The translations under genes were made by a program, and so were the position numbers. The notes under the pieces were generated by a model. It was not told where the DNA came from. It did no database searches and saw only the letters and a program-made list of their open reading frames with translations. 40,334 nucleotides of DNA from NCBI GenBank assembly GCA_016873275.1, contig VGXO01000025.1, positions 1 through 40,334 on the forward strand, read 5' to 3'. Below are positions 4,972 to 5,916 of this stretch, piece after piece. Each line of letters begins with the position of its first letter. Within the stretch, counting starts at the first letter, position 1. The stretch is from Phycisphaerae bacterium. GTDB lineage: Bacteria; Planctomycetota; Phycisphaerae; Phycisphaerales; SM1A02.

Positions 4972-5025
4972 GGGACTCCTCCTCGGCGTCTCCTCGGACC
5001 TTCGAGGTCTTGTCCGGCATCGAGT

Positions 5026-5062
5026 CCGGCGGCGTGATCCGCCGGGGATACAGTGTCGGCGG
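5026..5062 (+). promoter_or_regulatory. Promoter with overlapping inverted repeats (putative autoregulatory operator)
   Basis: The -10-like TACAGT (5049-5054) lies 11 nt before the nucleotidyltransferase ATG. It is embedded in three related half-sites: CCGGCGG (5026-5032) pairs with CCGCCGG (5039-5045) across 6 nt, and CCGCCG (5039-5044) also pairs with CGGCGG (5057-5062), exactly flanking the -10 box. Half-sites overlapping the core promoter are the usual layout of toxin-antitoxin operators, which supports autorepression as an inference. Confidence 0.5.
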
Positions 5063-5065
5063 ACC

Positions 5066-5617
5066 ATGAGGCTCGCGAGCATCGAGACCATCGCCCGGGC
5101 GCTGCATGCATCGGGAGTTCCCTTCATCGTCGTCGGAGGGCTGGCGGTCGTCGCCCACGGCTATGGACGCCAGACGCAGGATCTGGACCTGGTCGTGCCG
5201 CTCGACGCGGCGTCGGCGCCGCGGCTCTTCGAGGCGCTGGGCTCGATCGGATACGCGCCACGCATCCCGGTGACCGCCGCGCAGCTGGCGGATGAGGCGA
5301 CCCGCTCGCGCTGGATCGCCGAGCGCGGCATGACCGTGCTTGCGTTCCACAGCGAGGCGCATCGGGAGACGCCGATCGACGTCCTGGTGCGCGAGTCGTT
5401 CGACTTCACCTCCGAGCACGCGCAGGCGCGGGTCGCGGAGCTCTCGCCGGGCGTGACGGTCCGCATCCTCCGGCTGCCGACCCTCCTCCGCATGAAGGCG
5501 GACGCCGGTCGCCCGCAGGATCTGGCGGACGTCGCCGAGCTTCGCCGCATCCACGGACTCACGATGGATGGTCTCAAGAGGGAGGGACTCGAGGTGGAGG
5601 GACTCGAGGATGCCTGA
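5066..5617 (+). CDS. Nucleotidyltransferase-fold protein (MNT/AbiEii-like), putative toxin-antitoxin component
   Basis: The 183-residue protein carries the signature of small nucleotidyltransferases: VVGGLAVVAHGYGRQTQDLDLVV, with a GG turn followed by Asp-x-Asp (about residues 39 and 41), and a third acidic residue in the strand PIDVLVRESF (about residue 105). The C-terminal MKADAGRPQDLADVAEL segment is typical of the AbiEii/DUF6036-like group found as standalone genes or in toxin-antitoxin pairs. Members transfer a nucleotide to a partner protein or tRNA; the target here is unknown. The ATG at 5066 follows a TACAGT box inside a palindromic operator. The gene overlaps the next one by 8 bp, indicating coupled translation. 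A 15-bp-spaced duplication of ggagggactcgagg near its 3' end supplies the ribosome-binding site of the partner. Confidence 0.8.
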   Translation: MRLASIETIARALHASGVPFIVVGGLAVVAHGYGRQTQDLDLVVPLDAASAPRLFEALGSIGYAPRIPVTAAQLADEATRSRWIAERGMTVLAFHSEAHRETPIDVLVRESFDFTSEHAQARVAELSPGVTVRILRLPTLLRMKADAGRPQDLADVAELRRIHGLTMDGLKREGLEVEGLEDA

Positions 5618-5828
5618 GCGCGACGAGCCGACCCCGCGCGGCGCCGGGTCGCGCCCGCGGTCCCCCGAGCATCCCGTTCCGGAGGGCGAGATCGACTGGT
5701 CGCTCGCGACGTTCGATGGAGTGCGCCGCGCGCAGGAGCGGGAGTTCCTGCAGCTCTCCTTCCGCGAGAAGCTCATCCGCCTCGAGCAGATGGCGGAGGT
5801 GGCGGAGAGGCTTCGCCGGGGCGCGTGA
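5610..5828 (+). CDS. Small charged protein coupled to the nucleotidyltransferase
   Basis: The 72-residue product has a basic, proline-rich N-terminus (MPERDEPTPRGAGSRPRSPE), then an IDWSLATFDGVRRAQEREF segment and a predicted amphipathic helix (LSFREKLIRLEQMAEVAERL). From memory, short proteins with a W-x-L-x-T-x-x-G-x-R-R-x-Q motif often accompany small nucleotidyltransferases, but no name is assigned. The ATG at 5610 overlaps the upstream stop by 8 bp and GGAGG lies 9 nt before it. The pair is likely a two-gene module; this protein would be the antitoxin or the modified partner. It could alternatively be an unrelated regulatory peptide. Confidence 0.65.
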   Translation: MPERDEPTPRGAGSRPRSPEHPVPEGEIDWSLATFDGVRRAQEREFLQLSFREKLIRLEQMAEVAERLRRGA

Positions 5829-5866
5829 GGCGATCGGGGCGTCGCGGGGCGTCCGCGCGGCGGGCT

Positions 5867-5890
5867 TCATCGCCGGCGTCTCGGCGATGA
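5867..5890. terminator. Bidirectional terminator-like hairpin
   Basis: TCATCGCCG and CGGCGATGA form a perfect 9-bp stem with a 6-nt loop between the convergent small-protein gene and yidC. There is no long T-tract on either side, so intrinsic termination is only suggested. Confidence 0.4.
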
Positions 5891-5916
5891 GCGCGCCCGC
5901 GGCGCCGGGGAGGCGC

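What the first reader, a model, noticed from the sequence alone, without database searches (positions are those of the whole stretch)
5026..5828. Nucleotidyltransferase plus 72-residue partner under a triple half-site operator
A small nucleotidyltransferase with an intact D-x-D...D triad overlaps a short charged protein gene by 8 bp. Their promoter's -10 box is framed by inverted CCGCCG/CGGCGG half-sites, with a third half-site upstream. The layout is that of a toxin-antitoxin module, but the partner is neither a HEPN nor an AbiEi protein that I recognise, so it could be an undescribed class.
Basis: partly seen in the sequence, partly recalled or inferred. Interest (0 to 1): 0.65.

Follow-up and report, generated by a model that had tools for sequence, protein, structure and literature searches.

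The report
Nucleotidyltransferase toxin with undescribed mini-antitoxin
A bacterium, probably a planctomycete, carries a small inserted two-gene cassette that looks like a toxin (an enzyme related to a tuberculosis toxin that disables tRNAs) followed by a tiny unnamed helical protein that probably keeps it in check.

Summary
A 183-aa nucleotidyltransferase (NT, 5066-5617) overlaps a 72-aa gene (5610-5828) by 8 bp, and a -10-like TACAGT sits between CCGCCG/CGGCGG half-sites. The pair is co-conserved. With sequences 40% or more identical to the target left out of the profile, the small ORF beside the NT ranked first in 34 of 34 loci tested. Of 35 NT matches at E<=1e-14 in 392 genomes of the phylum, 32 have the small gene downstream, 2 upstream, and 1, a C-terminally truncated NT, has none. 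A same-genus genome has the empty mnmE/yidC site. The NT is a MenT/AbiEii-type enzyme: MenT1 of M. tuberculosis is its best structural match (profile E 1e-10; Z 13.7), with catalytic residues conserved. The partner has no match in the four family libraries searched and models as a disordered tail plus helical hairpin. In 9 of 40 partner places the NT is broken or missing. Best reading: a MenAT1-like module in reverse gene order, with an antitoxin not detectably related to MenA1. The operator idea is weak: half-sites are not conserved, and MenAT1 was reported not to autoregulate. New variant of a known kind. Toxicity, tRNA modification and neutralisation are inferred.

The parts
5066..5617 (+). 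Predicted toxin: 183-aa MenT/AbiEii-type nucleotidyltransferase (motif I G24-G25...R35-x-T37-x-D39-x-D41; D105; K144; R149-P-Q-D152-x-x-D155)
5610..5828 (+). Predicted antitoxin: 72 aa, low-confidence (probably disordered) N-terminal ~29 residues, then helical hairpin (helices 35-47 and 51-71) with core LSFREKLIRLEQMAEV
5610..5617 (+). 8-bp overlap ATGCCTGA (start of partner, stop of NT), consistent with translational coupling
5049..5054 (+). -10-like hexamer TACAGT, 11 nt before the NT start (near-leaderless); also seen 12 nt before the start in L008 and L009
   Evidence: not found by the sigma-70 scan
5026..5045 (.). Perfect inverted repeat CCGGCGG-N6-CCGCCGG; role uncertain
5057..5062 (.). 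Third half-site CGGCGG downstream of the -10-like box; role uncertain
4972..5916 (.). Stretch of 945 nt between the convergent ends of mnmE (+, ends 4971) and yidC (-, ends 5917); in same-genus genome G364 the two genes are 43 nt apart

Best explanation
The locus is a compact toxin-antitoxin module that works like MenAT1. The NT is the toxin: a MenT-type enzyme that most likely adds nucleotides to the 3' end of tRNAs and so stops translation. The overlapping 72-aa protein is the antitoxin. Its flexible N-terminus leaves the helical hairpin free to bind the NT, blocking the active site or moving the T37 loop so that the enzyme phosphorylates itself, as MenA1 does with MenT1 at T39. Overlapping genes would couple translation so that antitoxin is made with each round of toxin synthesis. 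Shown here: co-conservation, coding selection on both genes in relatives, NT fold (predicted) and catalytic residues, a site that is empty in a same-genus genome, decay of NT beside open partner frames. Inferred: toxicity, tRNA target, neutralisation and its mechanism.
For: NT: Pfam AbiEii above its cutoff (24.0 vs 22.5 bits). The profile of 33 sequences has MenT1 (8an4) as best solved relative, E 1e-10, and the alignment places T37, D39, D41, K144, D155 on MenT1 T39, D41, D43, K137, D152 (numbering matched by hand to PMC10435456, section 7 read). Predicted model: top five Foldseek rows are MenT1; Z 13.7 for MenT1 against 12.2 TM1012, 11.3 ANT(2'')-Ia, 8.9 MenT3/TglT. Pair: 32 of 35 NT matches at E<=1e-14 among 392 genomes have the small ORF downstream, 2 upstream; rank 1 in 34 of 34 loci tested with similar sequences excluded, E<0.01 in 33. 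Distances of the two proteins correlate (Pearson 0.88, 0 of 2000 permutations reach it; Spearman 0.47; 34 pairs). dN/dS 0.09-0.20 (partner) and 0.07-0.20 (NT) in the seven compared pairs with usable dS above 0.25. Antitoxin side: of 40 partner places at E<=4.3e-7, 31 lie beside an NT frame covering at least 150 of 168 profile positions and 9 beside fragments or nothing. Site empty in same-genus G364. Complex: a single chain of NT plus partner models at pLDDT 90.2, pTM 0.82.
Against: No experiment. Fold neighbours include small-molecule nucleotidyltransferases (ANT(2'')-Ia, LnuA). MenT1 residues F28 and F38, which matter for MenA1 binding, align with L26 and Q36, so the interface must differ. 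Gene order is opposite to menAT1. The partner is predicted as well-folded alone, so its high pLDDT in the fused chain says little about docking; no coordinates or PAE were available. Partner decay is expected to be rarer simply because the gene is about a third as long. The distance correlation partly reflects shared ancestry. The seven dN/dS pairs are from distant relatives and not independent; in the window's closest relatives (L005-L009, small dS) the partner ratio was 0.44-0.59 or undefined. Two homologues have a substituted catalytic Asp (L009 D39N; L017 D41H, with a stop before its N-terminus) yet keep the partner.
Confidence: 0.68

Rival explanations
1. Roles reversed, as in HEPN-MNT: the small protein is the toxin and the NT is the antitoxin that modifies it with nucleotides.
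For: Some two-gene NT modules work this way (HepT/MntA, start of abstract seen). Antitoxins can be enzymes.
Against: Partners have no conserved R-x4-6-H (scattered matches in 9 of 34) and the window partner has no Pfam, NCBIfam, PADLOC or PHROGs match at the limits used apart from a chance AsiA row, E 0.24. The NT is nearest to MenT toxins. NT genes decay beside open partner frames, not expected if the NT is the protective part.
Confidence: 0.1
2. Small-molecule nucleotidyltransferase (antibiotic inactivation) with an accessory subunit, not a toxin-antitoxin pair.
For: Fold similarity to ANT(2'')-Ia (Z 11.3) and LnuA (Z 10.9); 7 of 33 homologues match Aminoglyc_resit at E<=0.001; weak NCBIfam rows to Lnu models (2 of 33 for LnuE, 1 of 33 for LnuP).
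Against: MenT1 ranks first by profile, Foldseek and Z. These resistance enzymes act without such a partner (recalled). R149, D152 and D155 of the RPQDxxD motif shared with MenT1 are invariant in A2.
Confidence: 0.12
3. Pair in which the partner also represses the promoter through the CCGCCG half-sites (classic type II autoregulation) in addition to binding the NT.
For: Half-sites frame the -10-like box.
Against: Half-sites absent upstream in the six nearest intact homologues, present in 3 of 34 other loci; such clusters and inverted repeats recur in this GC-rich window; no DNA-binding domain found in the partner; MenAT1 reported not to autoregulate (PMC11375011 section 6).
Confidence: 0.12

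Closest known systems
MenAT1 (Rv0078B-Rv0078A) of Mycobacterium tuberculosis
   Same: NT fold and catalytic residues; toxin of similar length (183 here, PDB chain of 196); antitoxin of about 70 aa, helical, no DNA-binding domain detected; Thr two residues before the first catalytic Asp.
   Different: Gene order reversed (menA1 lies upstream of menT1); partner not detectably homologous to MenA1 (profiles A1, A3 and A6 against PDB sequences gave no MenA1 row); MenA1 has a long first helix and a short second (section 10 read), here the second helix is the longer; MenT1 F28/F38 are L26/Q36.
AbiE (AbiEi-AbiEii) and MenAT3/MenAT4, COG5340-DUF1814
   Same: Toxin superfamily (AbiEii Pfam match; MenT3 Z 8.9, MenT4 Z 7.9).
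   Different: Their antitoxins belong to COG5340 (passages; two-domain form in the abstract of PMC7319586); here the partner is a 72-aa protein with no such match.
HEPN-MNT (HepT-MntA)
   Same: Two small neighbouring genes, one a nucleotidyltransferase.
   Different: Partner shows no HEPN match or conserved R-x4-6-H; NT carries the VGGxAV...RxTxDxD and RPQDxxD motifs aligned with MenT1.
NT pairs with the small gene upstream (L100, L101, L104, L107, L110-L112 by profile; L057, L060, L115, L116, L120 by eye)
   Same: NT of the same superfamily; small partner with a loosely similar core, about [ST]xxx[KR][LIM]xx[LM].
   Different: Partner gene comes first; partner similarity is weak (E about 1e-6 to 1e-4 in small searches) or seen by eye only. 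No paper with DUF6036 or PF19502 in the library.

Membership tests
MenT/AbiEii (DUF1814-superfamily) nucleotidyltransferase toxins | Match to the AbiEii family model | tested here: met
   PF08843 24.0 bits, cutoff 22.5; modest margin. PADLOC AbiEii only 13.9 bits, E 0.0061.
MenT/AbiEii (DUF1814-superfamily) nucleotidyltransferase toxins | Catalytic residues equivalent to MenT1 T39, D41, K137, D152 | tested here: met
   T37, D39, K144, D155.
MenT/AbiEii (DUF1814-superfamily) nucleotidyltransferase toxins | Fold of MenT | tested here: met
   Z 13.7, rmsd 3.1 over 160 residues to 8an5_B, on a predicted model.
MenT/AbiEii (DUF1814-superfamily) nucleotidyltransferase toxins | Toxicity and nucleotide transfer to tRNA | not testable with these tools
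   Needs expression and tRNA assays.
MenAT1 | Antitoxin homologous to MenA1 | tested here: inconclusive
   No MenA1 row at E<=10 with three partner profiles; partner model alone gave no Foldseek match. Short helices are hard to test.
MenAT1 | Antitoxin gene upstream of the toxin gene | tested here: not met
   Partner lies downstream here and in 32 of the 35 NT matches at E<=1e-14, window included.
MenAT1 | Short antitoxin without DNA-binding domain | tested here: met
   72 aa, no DNA-binding family in Pfam, NCBIfam, PADLOC, PHROGs.
AbiE type IV / COG5340 pairs | COG5340/AbiEi antitoxin gene beside the toxin | tested here: not met
   Partner is 72 aa with no AbiEi match; the other neighbours are mnmE and yidC (named from their sequence and conservation).
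HEPN-MNT type VII | HEPN partner with conserved R-x4-6-H | tested here: not met
   Motif not conserved (9 of 34, scattered); no HEPN match.
Lincosamide/aminoglycoside nucleotidyltransferases | Match above the cutoff of a resistance family model | tested here: not met
   None for the window protein; PF10706 at 15.2 bits, cutoff 21.

The most novel reading that the evidence does not exclude
The partner founds an undescribed family of mini-antitoxins (helical hairpin with a core such as [ST]xxEKLxWLEE) that control MenT-like nucleotidyltransferase toxins, widespread in one phylum and probably beyond, in both gene orders. They may switch the toxin off by inducing its self-phosphorylation at the conserved Thr, without any kinase or DNA-binding part.
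Probability: 0.4. Interest if true: 0.65.

Novelty: new variant of a known kind. Interest (0 to 1): 0.5.

Why it matters
The MenT antitoxins studied so far belong to unrelated families. A large, recognisable family of very small partners, beside toxins with an invariant Thr at the known phospho-acceptor place, would let the proposed rule that antitoxins of this superfamily trigger toxin self-phosphorylation be tested outside M. tuberculosis. It would also put a function on a set of short genes that the family libraries searched here do not name.

Tried and rejected
Family look-ups of the window partner: nothing in NCBIfam, PADLOC or PHROGs and only a chance AsiA row in Pfam, E 0.24. The 18 other partners of alignment A6 gave scattered weak Pfam rows (best DUF7008, E 0.0024, one member; TFIIE_beta in two members; cutoffs not shown), dismissed. 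PDB sequence searches with partner profiles gave only weak rows to helical proteins and other unrelated chains, and the partner model alone gave no Foldseek match.

Spread: no NT in phage records; two scans of viral contigs confirmed none, though those scans rest on short patterns. One plasmid record for the window NT, none for L019, three for L037. Other phyla were not surveyed: the one genome-contig scan gave seven loci, all from planctomycete MAGs, and the genome handles came only from this phylum.

Weaker NT relatives: of the 17 further NT loci scanned (L112-L127 and L057), only L112 shows a partner-profile hit among the best rows printed. In L057, L115, L116 and L120 I see a short upstream ORF by eye; in others, such as L114, L124 and L125, I see no clear partner. 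The tight pairing holds for the close family, not for every NT of the superfamily.

Operator test: half-sites not conserved in relatives and recurrent in the window.

Alignment of the fused chain: a first alignment (A4) put partner rows on the NT and was discarded. I then tested sets of rows in scripts and used one that aligned correctly (A5, 12 NT rows and 15 partner rows). That choice was made by alignment, not by model quality.

dN/dS pairs left out of the main range: L032/L033 (saturated) and L005/6/7, L008/9 (dS below 0.25), where partner ratios were 0.44-0.59 or undefined. Loci left out of the test: L011 (NT deletion, contig end), L017 and L031, so 34 of the 37 loci L005-L041.

Full report
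Observation. They lie between mnmE (+, ending 4971) and yidC (-, ending 5917), named from their sequence and from conservation in relatives.

Empty site. In the same-genus genome G364, mnmE and yidC converge with 43 nt between them and neither gene of the pair is there; here 945 nt lie between. This means insertion here or loss there. Of the eleven relative loci with yidC (L043-L053) none held the pair, but L043 ends at the contig edge and in the nine others besides G364 mnmE follows yidC on the same strand, so G364 is the one clean comparison.

Toxin candidate. The NT passes the AbiEii cutoff by a small margin and has sub-threshold matches to NTP_transf_5 and DUF6036. Of the 33 members of A2, 21 match DUF6036 and 10 AbiEii at E<=0.001. 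G24, G25, R35, T37, D41, D105, K144, R149, D152, D155 are among the invariant columns. Against solved structures the profile finds MenT1 first (E 1e-10; next a lincosamide resistance protein at 0.0019). The alignment sets T37, D39, D41, K144 and D155 on MenT1 T39, D41, D43, K137 and D152; I matched the numbering by hand, with an offset of one between chain index and published number. In PMC10435456 (abstract, passages, sections 7, 10 and 11 read) D41A, K137A and D152A abolish MenT1 toxicity and T39A does not. In PMC11375011 (passages and section 6 read) MenA1 induces self-phosphorylation of MenT1 at T39.

Structure. The fused chain modelled with mean pLDDT 90.2 and pTM 0.82. Foldseek rows 1-5 are MenT1. 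Z values: MenT1 13.7, TM1012 12.2, ANT(2'')-Ia 11.3, LnuA 10.9, MenT3/TglT 8.9, MenT4 7.9. The order favours MenT1, but the first rows are close and the antibiotic-resistance enzymes share the fold. The partner region is confident in the fused model (block means 86-95 over its helices) and equally confident alone (89-98 from residue 31 to 70), so only the overall pTM hints at a fixed docking; that is weak evidence.

Partner family. The window partner and the six close ones share 15 invariant columns. A profile of those seven, run on every ORF of the loci then held (L001-L041), gave as its next 13 hits the ORFs directly downstream of NT genes; the first hit elsewhere had E 0.72. The stricter test removed from the profile all sequences at least 40% identical to the target: the ORF beside the NT ranked first of all six-frame ORFs in 34 of 34 loci, with E<0.01 in 33 and 0.021 in L041. 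L011, L017 and L031 were not in that test.

Counts. In 392 genomes of the phylum the NT query matched 114 at E<=1e-5, but the weaker matches include other NT subfamilies. For the 35 matches at E<=1e-14: 30 of 30 loci L012-L041, window included, have the downstream ORF (and for L031), as do G258 and a second G263 locus. Two have it upstream (L110, L112). One, L113, has none and its NT frame lacks the C-terminal motif (141 of 168 profile positions). From the other side, the partner profile matched 56 of 392 genomes at E<=0.01; several of the weakest fall in long frames and may be chance. Of the 40 places at E<=4.3e-7, 31 lie beside an NT frame covering at least 150 of 168 profile positions. One of these, L017 (G001), has a stop before its N-terminus and His for the second catalytic Asp, so its NT may be dead. 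In nine places the NT is fragmentary or missing (L065, L069, L074, L090, L092-L096). L011 and L094 look like internal deletions of the NT. Among the 35 NT matches no complete NT lacked a partner. This asymmetry fits a toxin that can be lost and an antitoxin that is harmless, though the partner gene is only about a third as long and so breaks less often, and the two searches sample differently.

Selection. In seven close pairs with dS above 0.25, dN/dS is 0.09-0.20 for the partner and 0.07-0.20 for NT, so both encode proteins under purifying selection there. These pairs come from distant relatives and are not independent. In the window's nearest relatives dS is too small for a good estimate, and the partner ratios are higher (0.44-0.59, one undefined). 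Distances of NT and partner correlate (Pearson 0.88, 0 of 2000 permutations; Spearman only 0.47; 34 pairs); shared ancestry contributes to this.

Two gene orders. In L100, L101, L104, L107, L110, L111 and L112 the partner profile hits an ORF upstream of an NT, weakly. In the second NT of this genome (L057), in a Geminocystis plasmid (L060) and in L115, L116 and L120 I see a short overlapping upstream ORF by eye. Other weak NT relatives show no clear partner. The downstream form of this window may be one arrangement of a larger set. MenA1 is also upstream of its toxin, but the profiles did not find it.

Promoter. TACAGT stands 11 nt before the ATG; the same hexamer stands 12 nt before the start in L008 and L009. 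This suggests a near-leaderless transcript. The half-sites are real but unconserved and recur in this window. Autoregulation is not needed: MenAT1 was reported not to autoregulate.

Novelty. Pfam, NCBIfam, PADLOC and PHROGs do not name the partner. Paper searches on MenT1/MenA1, DUF6036 with nucleotidyltransferase and antitoxin, AbiEii with small protein, DUF6036/PF19502, NT with planctomycetes, and NT toxin with small antitoxin listed no paper whose title or abstract start describes this pair. Those lists were capped and read as listings. Three papers were opened; the third, PMC2701414 (passages), pairs minimal nucleotidyltransferases with HEPN in the passages shown. Subscription journals are largely missing from the library. 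I therefore call it a new variant of a known kind, not a new class.

Noticed in passing
L057 (G000:C34:26500-31500), ORFs 2155-2358 and 2315-2752: Second, divergent NT in the same genome, with a 67-aa ORF upstream that overlaps the NT start.
   Followed up: partly
L060 (Geminocystis plasmid NZ_AP014817.1), 2335-2908: A 60-aa ORF labelled 'toxin secretion, membrane fusion protein' overlaps an NT, inside a type I restriction-modification gene cluster and near a VapC gene.
   Followed up: partly
L061 (Acidisarcina plasmid NZ_CP030844.1), 1441-2582: NT followed by a recombinase-family gene instead of a small partner, between IS6 transposase copies.
   Followed up: no
L065, L069, L074, L090, L092, L093, L094, L095, L096: Open partner reading frames beside decayed or missing NT genes; L069 has a transposase-like ORF upstream instead (by eye).
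   Followed up: partly
L011 3001-3165 and L094: NT genes with a similar apparent internal deletion that removes the catalytic middle and joins motif I to the C-terminal part.
   Followed up: no
L009 3001-3504 and L017 1522-2007: NT homologues with a substituted catalytic Asp (Asn in L009, His in L017, the latter also with a stop before its N-terminus), yet with a partner frame.
   Followed up: partly
window 5585-5617: Repeated GAGGGACTCGAG units at the 3' end of the NT gene give it a C-terminal tail of about 15 residues that its closest homologues lack.
   Followed up: no
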